Shown here: positions 13,081-55,502 of the stretch, piece by piece
How the letters are laid out: the number at the start of each line of letters is the position of its first letter
Numbering within the stretch: position 1 is the stretch's first letter
Assembly: GCA_030059675.1 (NCBI GenBank)
Contig: JANVYQ010000002.1
Location: 144,260 to 208,259 of the forward strand
Source: Candidatus Pelearchaeum maunauluense
GTDB taxonomy: Archaea; Thermoproteota; Nitrososphaeria_A; Caldarchaeales; Caldarchaeaceae
Direction of reading: 5' to 3'
DNA length: 64,000 bases
Program-made: the position numbers and the translations under genes
Notes under the pieces: generated by a model
What the model saw: the letters and a program-made list of their open reading frames with translations, nothing else
Told to the model about the DNA's origin: nothing
Databases searched by the model: none

Positions 13081-13584
13081 ATGCATAACGCCTTGGACAG
13101 GCTTTGGGCCCCTTGGAGAATGGCTTACATAAAGTCAGCAAAAGAAAACGACGAAGAATGTATCTTCTGCGTAAAACCAAAGCAAAATAAAGATGAAGAG
13201 AATCTAATCCTCAAGCGGGGGGAGAAGGCTTTCATAATAATGAATAGATTTCCCTATAATAATGGTCATGTTATGGTAAGCCCATATAGACATGTGGCCA
13301 GCATGGTGGATTTAGACGATGAGGAGGGGCTTGAAGTTATGAAGCTTATTAGTCTATCTATCCGCGCTTTGACCGAGGCGCTTAACCCTGATGCGTTTAA
13401 TATCGGTATAAACTTGGGCCGCGTAGCTGGCGCTGGAATTGCCGACCATGTTCATATTCATGTGGTCCCGCGCTGGCAGGGTGATACGAACTTCATGACA
13501 GTTATAGCAGATACGAAGGTAATGCCCGAACTATTGGAAGAAACTTACAGAAAGCTACTCAACGCCATCATGAAGCTCGGCTAA
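13081..13584 (+). CDS. HIT-family nucleotide hydrolase/transferase
   Basis: Histidine-triad protein acting on nucleoside phosphoramidates or dinucleoside polyphosphates. A zinc pair is suggested by CIFC near residue 25, the family pattern NNGHVMVSPYRHV follows, and the triad HVHIHVVPRW lies near residue 120. Length of 167 aa fits archaeal/actinobacterial Ap4A-phosphorylase-like HIT proteins. Follows the nuclease-like gene by 13 bp. Its 3' end overlaps the convergent glycosidase pseudogene by 30 bp. Confidence 0.9.
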   Translation: MHNALDRLWAPWRMAYIKSAKENDEECIFCVKPKQNKDEENLILKRGEKAFIIMNRFPYNNGHVMVSPYRHVASMVDLDDEEGLEVMKLISLSIRALTEALNPDAFNIGINLGRVAGAGIADHVHIHVVPRWQGDTNFMTVIADTKVMPELLEETYRKLLNAIMKLG

Positions 13585-14691
13585 TACCGCCAAGGCTGTA
13601 GCGCATCCAGTTCTAAAAGGCTTAGGCCCCCTCCCGCTTTCATTATCAGGATTAACCCACTCATAAAGACAGTACTTCACAACGCTACGCATTATGCGCC
13701 AAGACTCTTCTATGAAGCCAAGTCGGTTAAGGACGAGTGCATGCATGCTGGAGAACCATGGCCAGAAAGCTCCGTTATGATAGGTGCCCCATTTTCTTGA
13801 GCGCCAGCTACTTATGGGAAGTTGCGGATGAACCACGCGTGGGCCTATTTTATCATCTAGCTTCTTTGAGAGCTGCTTCACAATATCCTCGGACTCTACA
13901 TGCTCGGCGGCTAATACGGTGTCTTGCCAAACATGCTTTTTATATGCTCTTAATCCAACAACCCCTACTGGCTCACTGCTATCAAGCTTGAATGTCTTAA
14001 CAACAGCTTTCCGAGTCTCACGATAAACATCATACCATTCCTCGCGTTTCCCGTCAACCTCGGCTAGGGAGCGGAGGGCAGAAAGCCAGCAGACATTAGA
14101 GTAGAGAACTTTTCCATATCTATAAGCGGTATCCATCCAGTCCTCGTTAGGCCCCTGCTCAAGAACCATATCACCATCAACATCCTTATTCAAGAGAGCT
14201 GTTGCGGCGTTTTCAACAAGAGGTAAAAGCTCACTACGCTTCGTAGGCGAATCAACTTGCCTCAAAAACCTACAAGTGATGTCTATCATTAGTGCTGTGG
14301 AATCTATGTCGGGCTCCGCGCCATAAACTTATGGGCAGGCCTTGAGTATAGTTGTGGGGAGGATGCCTTGGAAGCGTTTCTTAAACTCGCGGCCTGCTAT
14401 TTTGTATGGCACGAATGTATTTCGGCTTCTTCCAGCCACTATCAAGGAGGACTCGCGTATTCTATGCATCCATATTTCGCTACACGCATTTAGCCCACGC
14501 TCATACTCGCCCAGAGCAAGCCAGCCATAGAGGATAAAAGCGGCATCCCGCGGCCATATGCCGAGATAGCCAGCCCCAGGTGTTATGCTACTCAGTATAA
14601 ACCTGCCTAGGAAATGGTGTAGATATTCTAACCAACTGTCATATGGTCTCTCCAATACCTTATCTATCTGCTGTTGTACGGCTTGAATCAT
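13555..14691 (-). pseudogene. Glucan-debranching/glucoamylase-type (alpha/alpha)6-barrel gene split by an in-frame TAA
   Basis: The track shows two ORFs (14329-14691 and 13555-14289) in the same frame. Reading through the TAA at 14331-14329 gives a continuous protein of about 378 codons, ...TILKACP-stop-VYGAEPDIDSTALMID. The first half has GIWPRDAAFILYGWLALG, the second half NEDWMDTAYRYGKVLYSN, both typical of amylo-alpha-1,6-glucosidase or glucoamylase-like barrels. CAA to TAA would explain the stop. The family is often longer, so the protein may be a catalytic-domain-only form. Either a recent nonsense mutation or a sequence error. Confidence 0.75.
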
Positions 14692-28871: not shown

Positions 28872-28975
28872 TGAGATGAGCGAACCGCGAAATAGATAAA
28901 TGGATAAATTTAGCCTGTTAAGCTAGACAGTTCGGTATGGGAATAGCATTAGAGGTACCTTAGTTTAAGTTAAAC

Positions 28976-29247
28976 GAACTCTTGACGGAATTAGAACGAC
29001 TGGGTTGGAGCAGGTCTCCAAGTGGTGACGAAACGTATAGAGAGAAAGTGGTTGATAAGTGGATTTGGAGCGGTTTATACGAGCGTTCAGAAGGCTATAT
29101 TATATATTCAAAAGTTATGTTGAAGGATATCAAGATGAGGAATATGCGTCACATCACAGAAAGGGTGTTCGGTTGTTAGAGAATGAAGTCTTAAAAGTAG
29201 CTAACAAATTGGAGTTACGGATGATATCTAGCAGACTTTTAGATTAA
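28976..29247 (+). pseudogene. Possible frameshifted small gene, unknown
   Basis: Two overlapping short frames (28982-29179 and 29059-29247) each look protein-like in complementary parts: LERLGWSRSPSGDETYREKV in the first, then RRLYYIFKSYVEGYQDEEYA and NEVLKVANKLELRM in the second. One frameshift near 29060 would join them into about 90 aa. No family recognised. The rest of the 28.87-29.29 kb stretch shows nothing. Confidence 0.3.
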
Positions 29248-29288
29248 ATACCTTGTTAACACTATAATCGTAAATAAATCATCTCTCG

Positions 29289-29705
29289 TTAGCTTTTAGT
29301 ACCTGCTACCTTCACTCCCCATATGCTCTCATACAGTTTGACTATGGAGATATAATCTAGTTCGCTCAACCCCATGGCCTTGCACTCCGTGAAAAGGTCC
29401 CTTACAGTACTAGCTATAGGCGTAGGGAACCCTAGCTCCTCAGCTATCTCCATAGCTAGCTGTATGTCCTTGAGCGTCAGGTCCACTGTGAAGTGTCGTT
29501 TGAAATCGGCTTTCAGGACTTTCTCGCTCTTGTTCTCGATCACATAGTTGTTAAAGACTGTCGTCTTCCATATGTCTATAGCTTTACCTGGGTCAACGTC
29601 TGCCTTAGCCATGAATGAGAGGATCTCTGCGAAGCTAGCTGCCATCATCCAAAGGTAAAGGTTCAACAAGATCTTGACTACTGAGTAAGAAGTTGTTGGC
29701 TTTGT
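29289..29705 (-). pseudogene. C-terminal fragment of a beta-hydroxyacid dehydrogenase (HIBADH family)
   Basis: About 135 residues match the C-terminal helical domain of 3-hydroxyisobutyrate/6-phosphogluconate-type dehydrogenases: VVKILLNLYLWMMAASFAEIL, KADFKRHFTVDLTLKDIQLA and the EELGFPTPIASTVRDLF end. The Rossmann domain is missing. The ORF runs on to 29801, but that part is antisense to another fragment. The break lies close to 29700. Confidence 0.75.
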
Positions 29706-29949
29706 AAGACGATGGAGTAGGGTGGCTACACAAGAGGTAGCGTCCCTGCTCGATATAACGAAGGATGAAGCGTATGAGATGCTGAAGTCGATAAGTAGCA
29801 AAGGTCTAGTTTATAGTATGAAAGCAGGAAACGATTACTTCTGGCTAGCAAAGATGAAAACATCCTGCGATCCTGAGAACGGGAGTATGCAACGCTCAGT
29901 TGTAGAAGGACCCCCTCCAGAGGCAAAGAACGAAGATCACCTAACGTAG
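29706..29949 (+). pseudogene. Winged-helix DNA-binding fragment
   Basis: In frame from the 29.7 kb break: VATQEVASLLDITKDEAYEM followed by LKSISSKGLVYSMKAGNDYF, the shape of a winged-helix transcription regulator. No start precedes it; the track's start at 29722 is internal to the first helix. It ends at a stop before the next gene, with a low-complexity tail (EGPPPEAKNEDHL). Parent gene unknown. Confidence 0.45.
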
Positions 29950-30328
29950 ATGATGCCGAAACCTAGAGGTGATAACATGTCAGTTCCATGGCCTCTAAAC
30001 TACACAAAACAAAGGACGATGAAAATAACTACGAAAGGCAGGAAGACAAGAAAGCACCATACTGTAACAGTATGGTTCGGAGTTGACGACGAAGGAAGGC
30101 TGTTCGTGTCTTCTTTGAGGAATAGAGACTGGTTAAGAACATATAGCTAACCCCGAGGTTGAGGTCACAATAAAAGGGATAACACGTAGGATTAGGGCCG
30201 TAGTGGCTGAATCCGAGGAGGATAAGCAGCTTATACGAAATATTTGGAGGAAGAAATATGGAATAATGGCTAGGATTATGCGGTTGCCTAGGGAAGATGG
30301 AATTAGCTTCGAGCTTAAGGAGGCGTAG
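29950..30328 (+). pseudogene. Deazaflavin (F420)-dependent nitroreductase-family gene with a +1 frameshift
   Basis: The first frame (29950-30150) gives ITTKGRKTRKHHTVTVWFGV and RLFVSSLRNRDWLRTYS then a stop. The next frame from 30146 continues ANPEVEVTIKGITRRIRAVV and WRKKYGIMARIMRL to a TAG at 30328. Together they form one small F420-binding split-barrel protein of the Ddn/DUF385 type. The shift lies at about 30141-30147, in acatatagct. Confidence 0.75.
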
Positions 30329-30331
30329 CCC

Positions 30332-30907
30332 TTGCTCAGCTTCTGGGACATGGCATACCTAACAGGCCTAGCTCCGTGGGATAGCGGTGAACCGCTAAGA
30401 GAGCTAGTTGAAATGGTTAAAAGAGGAATGATAAAGCCATCTAAGGTACTAGATATAGGGTGCGGTACTGGGTCTAATGTGGTTTTTCTCGCCTCAAAGG
30501 GATTTGAGACACATGGGCTAGATATATCTAGGGTAGCCCTAGCGAAGGCCAGCAAGAGAGCAGCTGCTAAAGGCGTTAAATGCTTTCTCCACCATCTCGA
30601 TTTCAGGGACGCAGATAAAGTCAGCAAATTAGGCGATTTCGACCTAGCTATAGACGTTGGATGCTACCATAGTCTACCGAATGGAGCGGACAGGCTACGC
30701 TACATCAACTCGCTAAACAAGGTGCTGAGGAAAGGTGGAGAATACTTCCTATGGTGTTTCGTGAGGGGTAAATCCTTTAGCTGGGGACCGCCAGGAGTAT
30801 ATGAGAATGAAATAGAACAGAACTATAGAGAACGCTATGATATACTTGAGAGTCACAGGATTAACACACCATTCAGAGATATGCTCTTTACCACATGCGT
30901 AAGGTGA
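30332..30907 (+). CDS. Class I SAM-dependent methyltransferase
   Basis: 191 aa, apparently intact. Motif I is VLDIGCGTGSNVVFLASKG; motif II acidic residue GLDIS; GDFDLAIDVGCYHSL and LRKGGEYFLWCFVRG follow. TTG start 4 bp after the preceding pseudogene stop, with taaggagg about 8 nt upstream. The family includes thiopurine/tellurite-type small-molecule methyltransferases. It is the only undamaged gene in this patch. Confidence 0.82.
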   Translation: MLSFWDMAYLTGLAPWDSGEPLRELVEMVKRGMIKPSKVLDIGCGTGSNVVFLASKGFETHGLDISRVALAKASKRAAAKGVKCFLHHLDFRDADKVSKLGDFDLAIDVGCYHSLPNGADRLRYINSLNKVLRKGGEYFLWCFVRGKSFSWGPPGVYENEIEQNYRERYDILESHRINTPFRDMLFTTCVR

Positions 30908-30917
30908 GTTAGAATAG

Positions 30918-31604
30918 ATGAAGGTTACCGTCGAGTTCTTCCACGACGTGTTATGTGCTTAGTGTTATTGCCTATTTCCCCGCATGAGGAGAATAGTTGC
31001 TAAATTTCCTCAAGTTGAGGTAGTTCACAGGTGTTTTGCCCTGGCACCTGAGCCCGATAGCGTAGCGAGGATATTCGGTAGCAAGGAAAGGGGCAAGAAA
31101 GAGATAATGCGACATTGGAGGGCTGCAAATATGAACGACGATGAGCATAGGATAAATGCGGACCTTATGGAGAGCAGAGAGTTTGACTATCCGTACTCTA
31201 TGCCGGGTCTGAAGGCGTGTAAAGCAGCCGAAATCCACAGGGGGCAGTTAGGACACTGGGATATGTTCGACAGGGTACAGAAGGCCCATCTCACTGAGTG
31301 CAGTAACATATCGGAAACTAGAGTTCTAGTAAACTGCGCAATTGATATAGGCCTAGACGTTAATAGGTTCGTTAACGACCTCAACAGCGAGAGAGTTAGT
31401 TACATGGTTTGGAGGGATATAGAGGAGGCTAGGAAGCTAAATATATACGCCGTCCCAACCCCAGTTATAAACAGGAGATATATCGTACAAGGAGCAATTA
31501 ACACGAGTATCTTAGAACTTATCTTTGAACAGCTCGTGGAGACGGGTGAGGTGCTAACACCGTTCTCCGGCGTTGTAGCTATTTTAAAAGGTGGTAAGGC
31601 GTGA
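30918..31604 (+). pseudogene. DsbA/FrnE-family oxidoreductase gene interrupted by TAG in its active site
   Basis: From ATG 30918 the frame reads VTVEFFHDVLCA-stop-CYCLFPRMRR. The stop (30960-30962) stands where the family has Trp in a CxWC-type motif. The same frame continues to 31604 with the DsbA-like helical insert and LNIYAVPTPVINRRYIVQGA, carrying the cis-proline. TGG to TAG is one transition. The track's start at 30984 is only the first Met after the stop. Probably a pseudogene. Confidence 0.8.
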
Positions 31605-31835
31605 CGCATTATCTAGCTAAAGCAAAGCCCATTAACGGTAAATTCGACGAATTTTATTTGGATTTTTGTTTGATTGTTGTCAAGATGGGGAGACGAAAGA
31701 CCTTTTAACCAGAAGAAGCATACTTCATTAGCAGCTAAGCCAAAGCCCTTCTAACGAGATAGTTGGGGAGGGCTTGATGGGAATAATATAGAATTATCCC
31801 AAAAAGGATTTGTCATAGAACTAGTTGCTATGTTA

Positions 31836-32370
31836 TCATACTCCAATCCTCAGCATTACTACTAACAAGATAACTATTACGCCGAGGATTATGTTTATCT
31901 CCGACATTACTTTTATGTTCTTTTGAGCTTTCTGAGCGTATTCAGGAGAAGCACCTTTAGCAAGCTTTAGACTCATCTTGGTTATAGCTAATCCGATTAC
32001 AACCATAATTAGAAATATTGACATTTTAGCAAGTAATATTAAGCCATATGTGATTGTTAATAGGACACTGAGCGTCAGGGCACCCAATAATTAGCTTTAA
32101 TTAAGCCCGTTATCGCTACAAGTATAATCGCTCCCCAGACTAGGGGCATGAAACGCTTCACAAGGGCCTGATTAATTAGTCTAGCTTGTTCTAGCGAACG
32201 ATTACTAACTGGGTTAACCGGCTTAAGAGCCGGCTGTAAGATCACATCAAAGAATATTGCACCATCCATCCAAAAATAACCGCTATCAGATGCAACCAGC
32301 CGAGTATTAGATTGATAAAATCGACCAAGCCTATCTCCTTAAGTGGTAAGTTTAGCAATGGTGGCTTCAT
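31836..32370 (-). pseudogene. CopD-like integral membrane protein, spread over three frames
   Basis: Three consecutive minus-strand frames each encode part of one membrane protein. The first is DFINLILGWLHLIAVIFGW, the second GAIFFDVILQPALKPVNP through FMPLVWGAIILVAITGLI, the third GALTLSVLLTITYGLILLAK to the C-terminus. One frameshift is in a TTTTT run near 32270, the other near 32085. The HLIAV...FFD..L.PAL pattern resembles CopD/DUF2269-type proteins. Start probably near 32370. Confidence 0.65.
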
Positions 32371-32384
32371 CAACGAAGCATATG

Positions 32385-32595
32385 AACTCTGCGGAAAGTT
32401 ATAAGCGCGTAATGGATTACTACGCATACGTAGCTAGAAACGACTTGGCGGTAGTTACCGCACAAACCGATGTAAAAGGCGATAGGTCGAAAAGACCTCA
32501 TGAGCAGGTAGACCCTGCTCTTTACTTAAAGGTAGATGAGGTCACCGATGAGGACATAGTGGTTTCAGGGGCCAGGGCTCACACGACCCAAAGCA
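32385..32595 (+). pseudogene. Internal fragment of a 4-hydroxyphenylacetate 3-monooxygenase (HpaB)-family gene
   Basis: About 68 residues: SYKRVMDYYAYVARNDLAVV, HEQVDPALYLKVDEVTDEDI and VVSGARAHTTQSIA fit the HpaB/4-hydroxybutyryl-CoA dehydratase flavoprotein family. Full proteins are near 480 aa; both ends are missing. Beyond about 32590 the plus-strand ORF is antisense to the reductase fragment. Confidence 0.65.
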
Positions 32596-32596
32596 T

Positions 32597-33191
32597 TGCA
32601 GTGGATCTCAGGCGCGTTGCACTGATAAACGCAGCTAGAAACTGTTATCTTATGCTTCCTCGGGAGATTCGAGTACTTCCTATTGCCGTATATGTAATTT
32701 GCTATTTCGTAAACTGTCGGTCTAGTATCGAACAACTCCTCCGGGTTTACTCCAGCTAACGGGTAGCCTGTTACATTTCTAACTACATCACCACACCCAC
32801 CAGCGGTAGTCAGCCCACCCTCCGACAGAAGAGAGAAGACCTCAGGTACGTCCTCCATCCTTATCCAATGGAGCTGTATGTTCTGCCTATTCGCTATCTC
32901 CGCGTAACCCCTACCGAAGTGCTCCGATATCTCACCTATAACCCGTGCCTGCTCTGGTTTCAGAATTCCGTTTGGTATCTTTATTCTCATCATGAAGTAC
33001 CCTAACCTCGGCTTGTCGTGATAAAGTCCCCACCATTGAAGCCTCACCATGTCTTCTTCCGCTACAGCCTCGTAACCTCTCTCCATCAGCTCTAGAACTT
33101 CGTCTAAGACGTCTAAAGGGGGAACTTCTCGGCCTTCATTCTCTCTAGGGTTTCGCCTTATTACTTCCTCGTAGCTAGGCTCGCTAGACAT
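32597..33191 (-). pseudogene. N-terminal half of a nitrite/sulfite reductase, truncated
   Basis: About 198 residues from the ATG at 33191 match the siroheme reductase N-terminus: RLQWWGLYHDKPRLGYFMMRIKI, the half-domain EHFGRGYAEIANRQNIQLHWI, GLTTAGGCGDVVRNVTGYP and KITVSSCVYQCNAPEI. The protein breaks off just inside the [4Fe-4S]/siroheme cysteine region, where it runs into the HpaB fragment. Families are usually more than 400 aa. Not functional as it stands. Confidence 0.8.
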
Positions 33192-33228
33192 GGCTTTTTA
33201 AATCACCTGTTACTGTCCCCCTATTATC

Positions 33229-33238
33229 TTTATATAAA
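33229..33238 (+). promoter_or_regulatory. TATA box of the COG1325 gene
   Basis: tttatataaa centred near 33234. An archaeal transcript would start about 25 nt downstream, at 33258-33262, which coincides with the ATT codon proposed as start of the RNA-binding protein gene. This suggests a leaderless mRNA. Confidence 0.6.
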
Positions 33239-33258
33239 TCTAATCCAATAGCACTCTT

Positions 33259-33642
33259 ATTGTTATCAGGGTAGAGGCTCCAGTCTATTTAACCGAGGAT
33301 GAAGAGAAGGTAGTTGAAGCAATAAAGAACATCTTTCCAAAATTCAATATTTCCTCCACCCAATATGAAGATTTGACAATACTCCATGGAGAAGGAAGCG
33401 GCCGCGAGCTTTTGGAGAAGCTACGTATGGTTATACGGTCGCGACGGATAAGAGCAGCTGCGCGTTCCTTCATGATGCAGAGAATAGACGATGGTATTCT
33501 TGTTTTTCTCTTAAATAAGCAAGCCGCCTCTGTGGGAAAAGTATCATTCTGCGAAAACGCGCAAGAAACCCCATTAGGCGCGATTAAGGTTACTATAAAG
33601 GGCGAAGGATTACGCGACTTGGTTGAGTGGCTTACAGAATAA
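33259..33642 (+). CDS. COG1325-type RNA-binding (exosome-associated) protein with a probable ATT start
   Basis: The track start (33373) truncates a clear family member. In frame upstream are IVIRVEAPVYLTEDEEKVVE and AIKNIFPKFNISSTQYEDL, the conserved N-terminal half; downstream LLNKQAASVGKVSF and PLGAIKVTIKG complete it. From the TAA at 33241 to the domain there is no ATG, GTG or TTG. ATT at 33259 gives 127 aa, the usual size, and sits where a leaderless transcript should begin. Either an AUU start, or the original start was lost when the neighbouring patch changed. Confidence 0.78.
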   Translation: MVIRVEAPVYLTEDEEKVVEAIKNIFPKFNISSTQYEDLTILHGEGSGRELLEKLRMVIRSRRIRAAARSFMMQRIDDGILVFLLNKQAASVGKVSFCENAQETPLGAIKVTIKGEGLRDLVEWLTE

Positions 33643-46057: not shown

Positions 46058-46472
46058 CTACTGTCGCTGATAAAGTTGCCTCAACAACTTTACAGCGTCA
46101 ACAAACTTCGTCGAGGTTAATTGGAGCCCTTCAGATTCGCTTAACTCCCTTACAATTGACTGCTCTAAAATTGCGTAGCCCGGCCCGAAGATTGTACGTA
46201 AAGCTTGTGAGAAAATTTCAGGCTTGTCAGGTATTTCGCCCCGCCTAACTCCAAAACTATTTTCAAGATGAAAGTATAACGCTCTCGTACCATTCTCGCC
46301 TAGAACCGATAATGCCCTATCTACGGCGTCTTGGACTATTCTTCTTAGTATATCATGGTCTTTGCTTATGTTGCTACACCACTGGTGTTAGTCTCAGCTT
46401 GGGGAATCCTTCGGAATAGTCGTAGTAATCATACATTAGTGGGGATGGTGGCTTCGCCGTATATACGACCAT
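46058..46472 (-). pseudogene. NitrOD5 output-domain gene, frameshifted or lacking a standard start
   Basis: Not in the ORF track. On the minus strand, 46375-46058 encodes about 105 aa: SKDHDILRRIVQDAVDRALS, ALYFHLENSFGVRRGEIPDK and SQALRTIFGPGYAILEQSIV. This matches the NitrOD5 (Nitrosopumilus output domain 5) pattern. The frame has no ATG/GTG/TTG before the domain. A 32-residue ORF with ATG at 46472 ends in a TAG overlapping its first codons in another frame. A one-base slip would join them. It follows the KaiC-like gene by 12 bp. Confidence 0.65.
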
Positions 46473-46484
46473 AGCGCCCTCAAC

Positions 46485-47771
46485 CTACTTAACGCATAAA
46501 TGCATATCACACATGTCTGATATCTTGTCCTTTATCTCACTAGACGCCCTTGAACCAAATACGACTACATCATCATCTTCGCGTACCCTAATAATCATCT
46601 CTGAGATTTCCTTCATAATTTCATCACTCGGATAAATGTGCTCCAGCTTATCTACTCCCAACAATAAGAAACAAGGTTTCCTCCCATTCTTGCGAAGCTC
46701 TTGAATAGCACCACGTAGATTTTCCATACTCTTTTTAAATGATGAACGGTCGAGTTTGAAATATTCCTTATCCTGTATATGTTCTCCGAAAATTCCTGTC
46801 TTTTGCCTCTCTTTTATATCTCGCTCATTAAGGTATGGTTTTATTGATTCGTTGATATATTGAGGTCTAACACCCCCAAAAGGTATTGCCACAACGCCTC
46901 CATCCTGAGCCAGCATATTCATCCTAATCTGCGCCAGAATGAAGAAATGCCATTCGGTGGGAGCGGTCTTACCTATCTCAAAAAATACTGCAGAACCCCC
47001 CTTTTTTAATCCGCCAGCGAGAAGTGCGTCAAAGTCTTCGCTTCCTGTCGAGTAATGTGTAGTTGTATGGGATATTGGCTTAAACTGTGATGGTTGTATC
47101 TTTTTTAGATTTTCTTCCTGGATGGGCTTGAATACTGTGAATCTCCCCCCATAAAGCGTAAAGAGCCTTCTACGCCTTGCTATGGCCTGTCCTCGGATTT
47201 TCTCTACATAAATCTTCCTAGCTCGCCTATTCTCAAACTCTTCATCACGAAGCTCTATAACCGCATCAACCAAATAATCCGCGGCTGTTATGTCTGGATT
47301 CTCGCTTACTATAACTAGTGTAGAATCGCTTGACTCAACTATTGCGGCAAGTGTCTTCTCTACACGAAGCCTCTCTTTCTCGTCAAGCTCCCGTGTTAGA
47401 GCATCAAGCGAATCCAAAACAATGAGAGGCAGCCTCAGTCTATGCACAGCTTCAATAACCTTAGAAACTATATCAGAGACAGTACCTAGCCTGAGGTCTT
47501 CAAACGATACCTTGATAGCCTCAGCTAGATACTCCTGAACGGCACTCCTCTCCACAAGCTCTCTAATATGGGGGAAGTGCTGGCCGAGCTTAATCTCAGA
47601 CACACGCGTAGATATGAACAACCCGCCTTTAGCAGCCTTAAGAAGCTATACAGCAAGAGTAGTCTTACCAGTCCCAGGCTCCCCCTTAATGATTATCGTC
47701 TTAATATTAGGGTCGATTAAGTCACCAATTCTAAACTCATTAACTAAATGCCATTCCTTACCAACGCTCAC
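46485..47771 (-). pseudogene. KaiC-like RecA-superfamily ATPase gene with TAG just after Walker A
   Basis: The track ORF starts at 47621, but the same frame extends back to a GTG at 47771 and encodes KTIIIKGEPGTGKTTLAV, then a TAG (47648-47646), then LLKAAKGGLFISTRVSEIKL. The Walker A motif therefore lies in the lost part; Walker B is LPLIVLDSLDAL. A second degenerate RecA-like half follows (TGSEDFDALLAGGLKKGG). CAG to TAG would restore Gln. Without readthrough the remaining 378 aa lack the P-loop. Confidence 0.78.
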
Positions 47772-48006
47772 TAACAAAAACCACAAAACACAAACTTAAA
47801 TCATTTATCATGCAAACATAGAAAGTACTAAGATATTGCTCAGAGCTCAAGATCTAGATCATAGCTCCTCTCAGCCTGGTCAGACTCATCATCGCATTAT
47901 AGAAAATGCTAAATTGTGTTTTAAATTTATCGTCGTTGGAAGCTGTGTAATACTCAACAACGTGTCTGAGGTAGGTTTTATGTAGGAGATTTTCGTTTGT
48001 TGTGAT

Positions 48007-49813: not shown

Positions 49814-50429
49814 ATACTCCTCGGCGTTATGTAGCGTTATTACCTTGGTATTTTAGTGCTACCCCCCCTCACTTTCAATCACCTCTCCATACTTAATTCC
49901 AGTCTTGAAACACTTAGAATTTGGATAATGAGGCTATTCAAAGACGAGGAGAGGTTATCCCCTGAATATGTTCCGAGCAAACTACCTCATAGAGAGAAGG
50001 AATTTTCAATTCTCAAGTGATTCTTCTCCTCACTCATAAGTGGAAAGACGCAGTATAGTGTGCGTGCCGTGATTACAGGCTCCGTTGGAACTGGAAAGAC
50101 TTCGCTAGCTAAATTATGCGGCCAAGGAGTAGAGCTGGAAGCAAGAAAAAACAGAAGAACAGTACATTACATACACATAAACTGCAGGATTAACCGTTCT
50201 CTATACTCGGTTCTTAGGAGGCTGGGCGAGGTTATAAACGCGCCACTACCCAAACGCGGCTTCTCAGATGAAGAGGTTATGCATTCTCTGCTTAAGTATC
50301 TTTCAAGGAGCAACACATACGTAATTCTGGGATTGGATGAGGTGGAGGTTCTATTCTCAGAAGAAGGGGCTGAGCCTTTCTATTTCCTCTCACGTATAGG
50401 TGAGGAAACCGCCGAATCCGCCTCGTTCG

Positions 50430-50660
50430 AAAATTGCAGTGCCGACACTCGAGATTTTCCCCCCTTCCCATGACTAGGGCAAGGTTTCTAACCGAAACTT
50501 GTATATTGAACAATTTGGCGAGCGCGGTGGCAACCGCTAGAGCCAGCTGAGTCCCGGATCCTAATCCAACATGCTCAGGAATTGTCTGTTTGACATTAAT
50601 GGAAACTTTAGCTTCTACATGATACTTTTCGAGGAATCTGCTCCACCCATAAGCTGCTCC
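50430..50660 (-). pseudogene. Fragment of beta-ribofuranosylaminobenzene 5'-phosphate synthase
   Basis: In frame with the upstream zinc-ribbon ORF: FLEKYHVEAKVSINVKQTIP and EHVGLGSGTQLALAVATALA, the GHMP-family ATP motif as found in beta-RFAP synthase of methanopterin biosynthesis. After VMGRG a slip in a run of six Gs would continue as GGKSRVSALQF, also family-like. About 75 residues of a roughly 300-aa enzyme; both ends missing. Confidence 0.65.
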
Positions 50661-51182
50661 GCCACACCCCCTCCCCCATCTCGGATAGGCCGTCATGCAC
50701 TCAAATTCCTCCGCTTGCTGCTGTCCGCTTTGTAAGGCGAAGTAATATTCATCCGCCACATACGTCGGGTGCAGCTCACCTATCCTTCGGCATCTGGCGA
50801 TGATGATCTTCTTGGCAGCGGGTTTGACGCCGAACTCATCGCGAATCTGTTCAAGGACAGTCCATGCAGACCTCGGGCGGAGGAATGGGACTCTGCCTCT
50901 TTCCTTTTCCCATTCCTCCCTTTCGGTCGCTTTTTCCTTCTTCCTTTCTTTCTCCTTCTCCTTTTCAGGCTCTAACTCCTCTAAGCCGACCTTCTTGATG
51001 AACTTCTTTGGTACCAGCTCCATCCCCACATCCTTTCCACAGGTTGAGCACTTGACCCAGCCACGCCTCGAACTGTGGTAAAGGAACTCAGTCACTGGCT
51101 GTCCACAGCTCGGACACTCAAAAGTTTCTTGTTCCGGACTCTCCTTCTCTTTTACTTCTTCTATATCCAACATTTTTGACAC
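50661..51182 (-). CDS. Zinc-ribbon, highly charged protein (truncated or fused at its 3' end), unknown
   Basis: ATG at 51182. Residues 22-48 form a ribbon (CPSCGQP...VKCSTCGKD), followed by a KE-rich segment (EPEKEKEKERKKEKATEREE) and FLRPRSAWTVLEQIRDEFGV. The ORF runs on into the beta-RFAP fragment and cdc6 antisense, so its own C-terminus is probably lost. Looks like a mobile-element-type DNA-binding protein, inferred only from ribbon and charge. Confidence 0.5.
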
Positions 51183-51185
51183 TTC

Positions 51186-51237
51186 ACTTAAGTTCCGACT
51201 TGAGTGGACTTAAAGTTATTCTTGGTTATAGTTAAGT
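51186..51237. promoter_or_regulatory. Cluster of ACTTAAGT-like palindromes before the zinc-ribbon ORF
   Basis: ACTTAAGT (51186-51193), ACTTGAGT (51198-51205), ACTTAAAGT (51208-51216) and AGTTAAGT (51230-51237), spaced about 10-12 bp for the first three. They begin 4 bp upstream of the ATG at 51182, where promoter and operator should lie. Possibly sites for the encoded protein itself. Confidence 0.45.
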
Positions 51238-51332
51238 GTGGACGCGCATAAGCCGACATTGTCGCTTCGCTTCTCTGGGTGAGGACTACCAAGATTTCTT
51301 TTGCCACGATTTTATCCTGGGCCTGTTATCGC

Positions 51333-52085
51333 TTATCCCGCCTGTCTTAGTAGAGGTATTGCATACTCTAGGGCTAGTTTGAGGGTTTCCTTCCTAGATT
51401 TCGTTATGGTCTTCTTCGCGTGGTTCTTGTCTACGTATTCTTCTCCTGTTAGGAGTAGGTGCCATATGGCTGTGAGTAACTTCCTTGCCGTGGCAACTAT
51501 CGCTATCTTGTGTCCTCTTCTCCCTCTCATTCTTAGGTAGAATTGTCTGATCTGACTGTTTCTCGCCTTGATGGCTACCGTTGCACATTGGACCGTTATC
51601 CTTCTGATCCATTTGTTTCTTCTCTTTGTGATGTGTCCAGACCTTGCTTTTTCCCGACTGATTGGTATGTTAATGGTGCTAATCCTGACCATGAGGCTAC
51701 CTGCTTATCGTTCTTGAAGCGTTTCGGGTCTCCTATCTCCGCTATCACTACTGATGCTGAGACCTCCCCTAATCCAGGCACCTTGCACAATCTCTCAACG
51801 TCTTTCTCGTTTATGGTCTCCGCTATTTTCGAGTTGAGCTGCCTGATCTACTCCTCAAGCCTGTTCACGTTTTCCAGGCACGTCTTCAGCTCTATTATGT
51901 CTGCCTCTCCTAGAACTCCTAGGATTGATGCCTTCACTTCTTCATCTTCAGCCTTTTGGAACCGTACTTCTCTATCACCTCGTCTATGTCTTCTCCTTCA
52001 TCAGCACGCGTGCGCGCGCTTCCTCCGTCTTGACTGTTGTTACGAGTAGGTCTCTGTACACGTCCATTCCGAATACGCGTTCCAT
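51333..52085 (-). pseudogene. IS110-family transposase, multiply frameshifted
   Basis: N-terminal catalytic-type start VFGMDVYRDLLVTTVKTEEA (from ATG 52085); then in shifted frames IDEVIEKYGSKRLKMKK and LGVLGEADIIEL, a TAG after RLEE. The Transposase_20 motif PGLGEVSASVVIAEIGDPKR and WSGLAPLTYQS follow, then after another shift SGHITKRRNKWIRRI and the C-terminus. At least three frameshifts and one stop. The plus-strand ORFs listed here are shadows. Confidence 0.75.
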
Positions 52086-52604
52086 TTCAAGTTCACCCCT
52101 ATTTACGGTTTGGAGGGCGCCCTCTCATTTAGACATCTTGCCACTCAGGCTCTGCGGCCTATTCATCCTTGAGCGTCGGGCGCGCTACTCGTTGCTTCTG
52201 GAGCTTCTACAAGGTCACCTACCGATGGAATGGTCAATAACATGAATAGGAGGGATGCTTTGATTAAGTTACGAATTATCTCTCTCCCACGTTTGATTTG
52301 GACCGCTTCCAATCAGATCGTGCACGCTAAAACTTCCTACGCTTGCACATCACCATCCTCTCACGCGTTCTCACCAATCTGACTTCGTTATTGCTGCATG
52401 TATCTTCCCTCTTAGGGAGCTATGCTTGAAATAAGCCCTGTATTCCCGCAAGACCGAACGTCCTGAGCGACATCAACCTCACAAAAAGATATAAAACACG
52501 ACTGGGGATGTAAAATATGTGAGATAGATGGCTTACAAAAAAACGAAAAGAACGCAAATAAGGAAGTATTCGCTCGCTGCACTGATAGAATCCCGAAGCA
52601 CCTG
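52086..52604. other. Non-coding right part of the insertion
   Basis: About 520 bp without a credible gene. A plus-strand frame from ATG 52528 (AYKKTKRTQIRKYSLAALIE) runs directly into the resumed cdc6 frame and may be a short element-derived piece; agatataaaa near 52490 is TATA-like. No tRNA or repeat array seen. Confidence 0.45.
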
Positions 52605-53280
52605 GAAGATTATCCATAATTGTTATACTCGCGACCCTGAAGTATTAGATAGGCTTGACGTCCAAACACGAAGCAGCCTACTGGGCACTGCGGTGCATCT
52701 CAGCGAATATAGCTACTAACAGCTCTTGGATATAATAAGGTATCGTGCCAACGAAGCTCTTTACCTTGGAGTACTTGCTGAAGAGACACTGGAGTTTTTA
52801 GCCGATGTATCTGCTGAGCGGGGAGACGCTAGGTATGCTATAGACCTACTCTGGCGCTCAGGAAAATTCGCCGAAGCCGACAATTCTGAGAAAATAACTC
52901 CAGAACATGTTCGGCGAGCTATCGCTAGTGTATATCCAACCATAAGACGAGAGAATCTTTCATATCTATCTCGTGATGAAGCGCTTATTCTACTTGCATG
53001 CGCAAAAACGCTAAGTAGCAATAGAGCATATACAACGTCAGCCGAGATTTTTGACATATACAAACTGGTATGCGAAGAGAAGGGGGTTGTCCCAAAGGGG
53101 TACACGTGGTTCTGGGAAACTCTACAAAAGCTTCAGTACTTAGGTTTTCTAAGTATAAGAGTTAGAAGCGAGGGCTCACGTGGGGGGAAGGAAATCTCAT
53201 ATCTCCCTGCCTGGAATACCTGCCCCCCTACTAGAAGCTGAGCTCTCTAAAGCCATTAACACGAGCAACAAACCTTAGAG

Positions 53281-54516
53281 CTACTTCTTACTTGACTTCA
53301 AGCCGCTTGCTAAATAGCTGACCTCACTCTTATCAAAGTCGAAGAACTTTGCTATACCCCGTGCTTTAGCTCCATTATGAGAGAAGATAAACGATATGAA
53401 TGGTAGGATTTCGCGCCATGCTTTGCTAGTAGAAAGATGACACCTGGCCGCTATTTTCGCAGCGATACGTTCGCGCATCTCCCTCTCGTTGCGTGTGTTG
53501 CTCATGAATCGTATCTTGGACGGGAAACTGAACTTGGCAAATTTGGTTGGAGCTTTATGCCTGGCCGCTGCCATGCCAGTAGTTATAAGAGGGGTGACGT
53601 ACTTCATCAACCCCCATCGCTGAAGCCGTGCTGTACGTTGAAGATGCATATCTGCACGGGCAAGCCGCTCTAAGGCTTCCGCCAATGCATCTATATCAGG
53701 TATCTGCTCTGGAGCATTATCAAACACCCATTGATAAAAAGACTGCAAATCCATGTTAAGTCCTTCCAACGCTAGTCGTCCATCGCGTATGCTCTTGGCG
53801 TTGAACGCCGCGGCAAGTGCGGAGAATATCTCACGGTCACGTAATCTATATCCTAAAGCATTCAATGTTTCGCGGCTTACGGCTCCTGTGGCCGCGATAG
53901 CTTGTAGGTCGTTTATAGCTGAGCGTAGATCTCCATTACTCCTATCTGCTATCTCTTTTAGTACTTCGTCAGAACATTTAAGACCTTCCGCAGTACATAT
54001 CTTTTTCAAATGACTGACTATCGTAGCTTTATGTATCCTCTTAAACTCTATCAGCTGAGCCTTTTCGCGAAGTCCAGCTAACCGCTGGTCCCATGGATTA
54101 TTAGCTACTAAAACTATCGGCACGCGTGTGTTGGTTATCACTTTGGATAATGCGGATACTCCTCCAACATCCTCTTTCCCCGCCAATCCATCAACCTCAT
54201 CCACTAGTATTATTCGTTTCCTCAGCCCAGTGATTGTTGCTTGCTGTGAGGCTAGGCCTACAATTTGCTCGACTTTTTCAGCTGTTCTGAAGTCGCTTGC
54301 ATTAACCTCAACCACGTCTAGGCCGTTCTCATTTGCATACGCCAAAACAAGCGAGGTTTTTCCAACTCCGGCGGGGCCGTAAAGAAGTGCAGCTTTCTTA
54401 GATGGTTTGCCAGCACTCCACTGTTTAGCCCAAGCTAGGAAAGACTCTATAGCCTCCTTATTCCCAACGACCTCGGATACTCGTTTCGGTCTGTATTTTT
54501 CCGTCCAGGGAATCAT
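53281..54516 (-). CDS. rfcL: Replication factor C large subunit
   Basis: Clamp-loader subunit. MIPWTEKYRPKRVSEVVGNK, Walker A YGPAGVGKTSLVLAYANENG, Walker B IILVDEVDGL, sensor region VLVANNPWDQRL. 411 aa with a basic C-terminus (SGLKSSKK). Start overlaps the small-subunit stop by 4 bp. Confidence 0.95.
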   Translation of the reverse strand: MIPWTEKYRPKRVSEVVGNKEAIESFLAWAKQWSAGKPSKKAALLYGPAGVGKTSLVLAYANENGLDVVEVNASDFRTAEKVEQIVGLASQQATITGLRKRIILVDEVDGLAGKEDVGGVSALSKVITNTRVPIVLVANNPWDQRLAGLREKAQLIEFKRIHKATIVSHLKKICTAEGLKCSDEVLKEIADRSNGDLRSAINDLQAIAATGAVSRETLNALGYRLRDREIFSALAAAFNAKSIRDGRLALEGLNMDLQSFYQWVFDNAPEQIPDIDALAEALERLARADMHLQRTARLQRWGLMKYVTPLITTGMAAARHKAPTKFAKFSFPSKIRFMSNTRNEREMRERIAAKIAARCHLSTSKAWREILPFISFIFSHNGAKARGIAKFFDFDKSEVSYLASGLKSSKK

Positions 54517-55502
54517 CTCGTTTTCCGCATCTTCTTAGCCAGCTTAGATACCAGAGCTAATATCTGTATCTCTGGTGTTCCGCCTTCAGCTATCCTGAAG
54601 TCGGCCTCACCTAATGCGTCAAGTATCTCAACCTTATCTTCTTCCGATATGTCAAGTTGGCCGATTTCACGGTATATTGCTGTGAGGAGGTCGCTTGGCG
54701 CAACACCTTGTAAGTATAGAAGCTCGCGAAGCAAGTCGCGTGCTTCGCTTATCTTGCCTGACAGCCCCAGCTCAAGCAACCGCCTAACCTCCCCACGGCT
54801 AACATAGCCTATTACCTGATAAACCGTCTTCTCATCCACATCACGTGATATTGAGACCGCTGCTTGGAGTATGTTTATTGACTTCCGCATATCCCCCTCT
54901 GAAAAGTCGTAAATCGCCTCCAAAGCGGCTGATGAAATGTTAAGCCCCTCGTTTTTAGCGATTTTACCCAAATGCTCTATTACCTTATCTCTGGGAAGAG
55001 GCCTGAATCTAAGTACTGCGCATCTTGACTGTATGGGCTCTATAATCCTATTGCTATAGTTAGCCACTAGGATAAACCTGCATGTGGCCGAGAATTGCTC
55101 CATCGTTCTTCTAAAAGCATGCTGAGCGTCGTCTGTCAGCTGGTCGCTCTCATCCAGTAGTAGAATTCTAAACCCTATAGGGCCGAATGGAACTGAGCGT
55201 GCATACATTTTCACCTTCTCTCTGATTGTCTGGATTCCGCGTTCGTCTGATGCGTTAATCTCAACGAAGAGCCCCTCGGTTAGGTAGTTAGGACCGTATA
55301 ACTCGCGGGCGAATGCGTGGGCTGAAGCAGTTTTCCCAGTACCTGGTGGGCCTGCGAAGAGCATATGTGGAACCTGCCTTGTTTGGAGGATATTCTTCAA
55401 AGCTCTTACGACTTCTTCCTGGTCAACCATCTCATCAAGCGTCTTGGGTCTATATTTCTCTATCCAGGGAAGCTCGCCCACGAGCCGTTCTTCAACTGCC
55501 AT
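54513..55502 (-). CDS. rfcS: Replication factor C small subunit
   Basis: AAA+ clamp-loader subunit. ELPWIEKYRPKTLDEMVDQE, Walker A FAGPPGTGKTASAHAFAREL, Walker B ILLLDESDQLTDDAQHAFRR (E-S in place of the common E-A), and SRC motif IEPIQSRCAVLRF. 329 aa. Coupled to rfcL. Confidence 0.97.
   Translation of the reverse strand: MAVEERLVGELPWIEKYRPKTLDEMVDQEEVVRALKNILQTRQVPHMLFAGPPGTGKTASAHAFARELYGPNYLTEGLFVEINASDERGIQTIREKVKMYARSVPFGPIGFRILLLDESDQLTDDAQHAFRRTMEQFSATCRFILVANYSNRIIEPIQSRCAVLRFRPLPRDKVIEHLGKIAKNEGLNISSAALEAIYDFSEGDMRKSINILQAAVSISRDVDEKTVYQVIGYVSRGEVRRLLELGLSGKISEARDLLRELLYLQGVAPSDLLTAIYREIGQLDISEEDKVEILDALGEADFRIAEGGTPEIQILALVSKLAKKMRKTR

What the first reader, a model, noticed from the sequence alone, without database searches (positions are those of the whole stretch)
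49928..53241. Orc1/Cdc6 gene split by an IS110-bearing insertion and two in-frame stops
Read directly: both halves are in recognisable Orc1/Cdc6 sequence and sum to a normal length. A TGA at 50018, a TAA at 52717 and about 2.2 kb of foreign DNA break it. A dead replication initiator next to functioning rfc, mcm and gins loci implies another orc1 copy, or a redundant origin being lost.
Basis: partly seen in the sequence, partly recalled or inferred. Interest (0 to 1): 0.75.

Follow-up and report, generated by a model that had tools for sequence, protein, structure and literature searches.

The report
Recently broken second archaeal replication-initiator gene
One hot-spring archaeon has recently lost, through several separate mutations and a 2.2 kb insertion of foreign DNA fragments, the second of two ancient DNA-replication initiator genes that nearly all its relatives keep, while the first copy and its neighbouring origin remain intact.

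Summary
The window (G000, a Caldarchaeales genome; nearest named relative Ca. Pelearchaeum S146_89) carries a dead orc1/cdc6 gene at 49928-53278. A congener (G006/L012) has the same locus, about 89% identical, with an intact 388-codon gene and an empty insertion site. Against it G000 shows TGA (50018), TAA (52717), a 1-bp deletion (~52630), a 1-bp insertion (~53187) and a 2185-bp insert (50410-52594). The insert is a single-copy mosaic of a beta-RFAP-synthase fragment, a zinc-ribbon ORF and a decayed IS110 remnant. Neighbouring genes are intact in both genomes, which argues against general assembly error.

The gene is an Orc1-2-type paralogue, convergent with rfcL in 42 of 44 genomes of the class and broken only here. 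The genome keeps one intact Orc1-1. Its only ORB-type sites lie upstream of orc1-1; none lies at orc1-2 loci. So "another orc1 copy" is correct, but "a redundant origin being lost" is not supported. Low dN/dS (0.048) plus radical changes at conserved residues points to recent death. The event fits published work: the origin-unlinked core Orc1 is dispensable in Sulfolobus islandicus. Reads across the junctions could not be checked.

The parts
49928..50409 (+). 5' part of the orc1-2 pseudogene: start codon, Walker A (GSVGTGKT) and Walker B (LGLDE) region, codons 1-161
   Evidence: Pfam AAA_22; 96% protein identity to the intact congener gene
50018..50020 (+). in-frame TGA; the congener has a Ser codon at position 31
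50410..52594 (.). 2185-bp insert absent from the congener, single copy in the genome
50410..51182 (-). truncated ORF in the insert: zinc-ribbon-like N-terminus joined to an internal fragment of a beta-RFAP synthase/GHMP kinase (about model positions 73-132 of 327), frameshifted near 50465
   Evidence: best class match 55% in G005, 35% to the genome's own copy
51336..52124 (-). decayed IS110-family transposase, spread over several frames with an internal stop
   Evidence: Transposase_20 1.6e-14, transpos_IS110 2.3e-14; frames; no sibling copy in the genome
52595..53278 (+). 3' part of the orc1-2 pseudogene: AAA+ lid and winged helix
   Evidence: Cdc6_lid 1.8e-23 and Cdc6_C 1.9e-11; alignment to L012
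52629..52631 (+). 1-bp deletion frameshift relative to the congener
52717..52719 (+). in-frame TAA; the congener has a Glu codon at position 203
53182..53188 (+). 1-bp insertion in a G run that shifts the last ~30 codons and makes the premature stop at 53239-53241
53281..55502 (-). intact rfcL (53281-54516) and rfcS (54513-55502), convergent with orc1-2; conserved context
   Evidence: same arrangement of orc1-2 and rfcL in 42 class genomes

Best explanation
This is a recently inactivated copy of the vertically inherited, origin-unlinked Orc1-2-type paralogue of Caldarchaeales. The lineage keeps a single intact Orc1, Orc1-1, which sits next to the only detectable ORB-type origin and presumably fires it. 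Orc1-2 became dispensable, and the gene then took two nonsense mutations, two 1-bp frameshifts and a 2.2 kb insertion of mosaic foreign DNA. The order of these events is unknown. SHOWN: the lesions, the intact orthologue and empty site in the congener, order-wide conservation of the gene and its rfcL neighbour, and ORB sites at orc1-1 only. INFERRED: that Orc1-1 fires the origin, that Orc1-2 was a non-initiator, and that the insert came in by illegitimate recombination of already broken DNA. The last rests on the following: the insert's left end lies inside a gene fragment, only a possible 3-bp repeat (CCG) flanks it, the IS110 has no sibling copy, and no terminal inverted repeats were found.
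For: Intact orthologue and empty site in L012/G006. Two old Orc1 clades with vertical topology; orc1-2/rfcL adjacency in 42 of 44 genomes, all intact except G000's. One intact Orc1-1 in G000. ORB-like sites upstream of orc1-1 in 14 of 14 loci (mean 15.4 of 21 positions, against 12.2 in random stretches) and none upstream of 29 orc1-2 loci (12.2); genome-wide only two ORB matches, both upstream of orc1-1. dN/dS 0.048 overall, but radical changes at conserved residues in G000 only (D343Y where 41 of 41 outgroup sequences have D, R333W, P219L, S372P) and a longer terminal branch (0.054 against 0.022). Literature: the core copy not linked to an origin is typical of archaea with two core copies and is dispensable for initiation in S. 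islandicus (PMC5333045); the S. islandicus Orc1-2 is a DNA-damage regulator (PMC9738581).
Against: Two nonsense mutations with so few missense changes is somewhat unlikely under neutral decay (about 0.03 to 0.12 for 4-10 excess missense). Both frameshifts, and the one in the RFAP fragment, touch short runs of the same base, the kind of place where sequencing errors also occur. Reads were not available. The genome is 94% complete, so a further orc1 could be missed.
Confidence: 0.85

Rival explanations
1. Assembly or consensus error: the locus is intact in the organism, and the insert and small indels are artefacts of binning, chimeric assembly or homopolymer errors.
For: Both orc1-2 frameshifts, and the one in the RFAP fragment, lie in short runs of one base. 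No reads could be inspected.
Against: The sequence leaves and re-enters orc1-2 at positions 1 bp apart in the congener, which a misjoin would not produce. About 30 neighbouring genes are open in both genomes, the exception being the kaiC/GvpD-like gene. The lesions include two substitutions to stop codons and four radical missense changes at conserved residues.
Confidence: 0.08
2. The loss reflects a second chromosomal origin being abandoned together with its cognate initiator.
For: In Sulfolobus and haloarchaea, initiators are often encoded beside the origin they fire, so an initiator and its origin can be lost together (PMC5333045).
Against: No ORB-like sites upstream of orc1-2 in any of 29 relatives and usually little intergenic space. 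No third ORB match in the G000 genome at up to 2 mismatches.
Confidence: 0.06
3. The 5' and 3' parts, or the internal ORFs (GTG 50060-50473 and TTG 52726-53241), are still expressed as split proteins with a residual role such as DNA binding by the lid-winged helix fragment.
For: Each part retains recognisable domains, and overall dN/dS is still low.
Against: Four radical changes at conserved residues, including an invariant Asp in the C-terminal part; both frameshifts fall in the 3' part and one disrupts its end. No split Orc1 was seen elsewhere in the class.
Confidence: 0.03

Closest known systems
Orc1-2/Cdc6-2 of Sulfolobales (S. islandicus; non-initiator, DNA-damage regulator)
   Same: Origin-unlinked second core Orc1 paralogue; in the tree it falls outside the strongly supported Orc1-1 clade, as the presumed Sulfolobales Orc1-2 proteins do. 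Same AAA+, lid and winged-helix layout. Deletion does not affect initiation in S. islandicus (PMC5333045).
   Different: About 30-33% identity only; deep branching unresolved (support 62); regulation by DNA damage untested in Caldarchaeales; here it is a pseudogene.
Pyrobaculum aerophilum Cdc6 (PDB 1fnn)
   Same: Best solved-structure match of the intact congener protein (1e-48); same deep part of the tree.
   Different: It was described as an initiator (PMC9738581 lists it among characterised initiators), so position in the tree alone does not settle function.
IS110/IS1111-family insertion sequences
   Same: Transposase_20 domain in the insert.
   Different: Decayed; no Pfam hit for the N-terminal piece; no sibling copies; it lies inside a larger mosaic insert whose left end is a gene fragment.

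Membership tests
Orc1/Cdc6 family | AAA+ ATPase core with Walker A and B | tested here: met
   AAA_22 above cut-off in the 5' part; GSVGTGKT and LGLDE motifs
Orc1/Cdc6 family | Cdc6 lid and C-terminal winged helix | tested here: met
   PF22703 1.8e-23, PF09079 1.9e-11; the congener protein scores 270.6 against the TIGR02928 cut-off of 181.3
Orc1/Cdc6 family | Intact open reading frame | tested here: not met
   two stops, two frameshifts, 2185-bp insert
Orc1-2 (origin-unlinked core paralogue) | Groups outside the Orc1-1 initiator clade | tested here: met
   Orc1-1 clade 100/100 excludes it
Orc1-2 (origin-unlinked core paralogue) | No origin next to the gene | tested here: met
   ORB score at background upstream of 29 orc1-2 loci; downstream side not scanned
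Orc1-2 (origin-unlinked core paralogue) | Strict clade with Sulfolobales Orc1-2 | tested here: inconclusive
   deep nodes have weak support, 62/81
Sulfolobus Orc1-2 damage regulator | DNA-damage-induced global regulation | not testable with these tools
   needs expression data
IS110 family | Transposase_20 domain | tested here: met
IS110 family | N-terminal DEDD catalytic domain | tested here: inconclusive
   46-aa N-terminal piece has no Pfam hit
IS110 family | Intact element able to move | tested here: not met
   broken over several frames, single copy

The most novel reading that the evidence does not exclude
This lineage is a natural Orc1-2 knockout: it has switched to replication, and perhaps a DNA-damage response, run with a single Orc1 at a single origin. 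The loss went together with decay of the nearby kaiC/GvpD-like ATPase gene (two in-frame TAGs), hinting at a shared functional module now discarded.
Probability: 0.2. Interest if true: 0.5.

Novelty: new member of a known kind. Interest (0 to 1): 0.35.

Why it matters
Archaea often keep two ancient Orc1 paralogues, and the role of the one not linked to an origin is open outside Sulfolobales. A congeneric pair, one with an intact and one with a freshly dead Orc1-2, lets one ask what is lost with the gene: origin usage, damage-response promoters, mutation rate. The order-wide map of orc1-2 next to rfcL, and of ORB sites only at orc1-1, supports the published rule that only one of two core copies is linked to an origin.

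Tried and rejected
Stop-codon recoding was rejected: the orc1-2 stops are TGA and TAA, and TAG is the commonest terminal stop in 56 window genes (26 TAG, 17 TAA, 13 TGA). An error-prone assembly was rejected by comparing the neighbouring genes with the congener. Source of the insert: no second copy in the genome; the zinc-ribbon part has no relative in the class, in IMG/VR or in phage records; the IS110 has only ~30% matches, in one genome. Its donor is unknown. Terminal inverted repeats of a transposon: none found. An exact palindrome search for ORB cores was too strict; the scored search replaced it. One automatic alignment of the ECH gene was out of frame (w = 1.55) and is ignored; the corrected value is 0.034.

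Full report
OBSERVATION. The window lies at G000:C9:144260-208259, a 1.79 Mb, 94% complete genome in 21 contigs. At 49928-50409 there is the start and the AAA+ core of an Orc1/Cdc6 protein, and from 52595 on its lid and winged helix.

THE INTACT COUNTERPART. A genome scan with the 3' part found Ca. Pelearchaeum S146_89 (L012; the same locus as G006:C120) at 94% protein identity over that part. Its locus is collinear at about 89% nucleotide identity, with an uninterrupted 388-codon orc1. The alignment breaks at L012 2542/2544, so the insert in the window is 50410-52594, 2185 bp. The total is five disabling lesions.

NOT AN ASSEMBLY FAULT, AS FAR AS CAN BE TOLD. About 30 neighbouring genes compared with the congener are open in both genomes; the other broken one is the kaiC/GvpD-like gene at 46377-47777. 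The sequence leaves and returns to orc1-2 one base apart in the congener, which a misjoin would not do. Reads could not be checked.

THE INSERT. It has no second copy in the genome. Its left part is an internal fragment of a beta-RFAP synthase fused to a zinc-ribbon N-terminus, closer to a homologue in G005 (55%) than to the genome's own copy (35%). Its middle is an IS110 transposase broken over several frames with no sibling in the genome. No terminal inverted repeats were found, and at most a 3-bp repeat (CCG) flanks it (from the junctions printed). This looks like a mosaic of already broken foreign DNA rather than one transposition; that is inference.

WHICH ORC1. The class holds 44 searchable genomes. 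All of the better ones (at least 90% complete) have two or more Orc1 loci. The copies form two old clades whose topology follows the families. The clade that includes the broken gene is convergent with rfcL in 42 genomes, the exceptions being G000 itself (interrupted) and G008 (82% complete, no copy found). Only G000's copy is broken. In a wider tree the Caldarchaeales Orc1-1 proteins join Sulfolobus Orc1-1 and Aeropyrum Orc1 with 100/100. The broken type falls outside, in the part that also holds the Pyrobaculum Cdc6 and the presumed Sulfolobales Orc1-2 proteins, with weak deep support.

ORIGIN. A canonical ORB-like sequence (TTCCATAGGAAATGAAGGGGT in G000) lies upstream of orc1-1 in all 14 loci tested (mean 15.4 of 21 positions; random stretches 12.2). 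Upstream of 29 orc1-2 loci the mean is 12.2, that is, background. Genome-wide, with up to 2 mismatches, G000 has two matches, both upstream of orc1-1 and in inverted orientation; the reversed-pattern control has none. The idea that an origin at this locus is being lost therefore has no support.

TIMING. dN/dS against the congener is 0.048, like rfcL (0.040), ECH (0.034) and orc1-1 (0.056), so constraint held for most of the divergence. But G000 alone carries D343Y at a residue that is Asp in all 41 outgroup sequences, and R333W, P219L and S372P at otherwise conserved sites. Its branch is 0.054 against 0.022 for the congener. This fits a recent death. Two nonsense changes among so few missense changes is mildly unlikely but not alarming.

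MEANING. Published work says that where an archaeon has two slow-evolving Orc1 copies, only one is linked to an origin, and that deleting the unlinked one in S. islandicus leaves initiation intact (PMC5333045). That protein is a DNA-damage regulator there (PMC9738581). The loss here is a natural example of the same dispensability. Whether the Caldarchaeales protein had a damage-response role is unknown.

Noticed in passing
window 46377-47777 (- strand): A kaiC/GvpD-like ATPase gene, 469 codons and intact in the congener, has two in-frame TAGs in G000 (both at Glu codons) and no frameshift: a second recent pseudogene 2-3 kb from orc1-2, with intact ECH and MBL genes between.
   Followed up: partly
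G000:C2:169367-170719 (- strand): The kaiC/GvpD-like paralogue on another contig also has one in-frame TAG, while the congener's copy has none.
   Followed up: no
window 28892-33269: A 4.4 kb stretch absent from the congener (empty site at G006:C7 2886/2891), holding several truncated-looking genes: hydroxyisobutyrate dehydrogenase, sulfite/nitrite reductase, DsbA-like, methyltransferase.
   Followed up: partly
window 13555-14691 (- strand): Two adjacent same-strand ORFs (13555-14289 and 14329-14691) that read like one split glycoside-hydrolase-type protein, possibly another pseudogene; no Pfam hit for either.
   Followed up: no
L083 around G000:C2:267789-267984: Two ORB-like sites in inverted orientation upstream of orc1-1: the predicted replication origin of this genome.
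   Followed up: yes
L033, L034, L035, L036: A third, highly divergent Orc1 paralogue is present in four genomes of the same family (G001, G003, G004, G005) but not in the window's genus.
   Followed up: no
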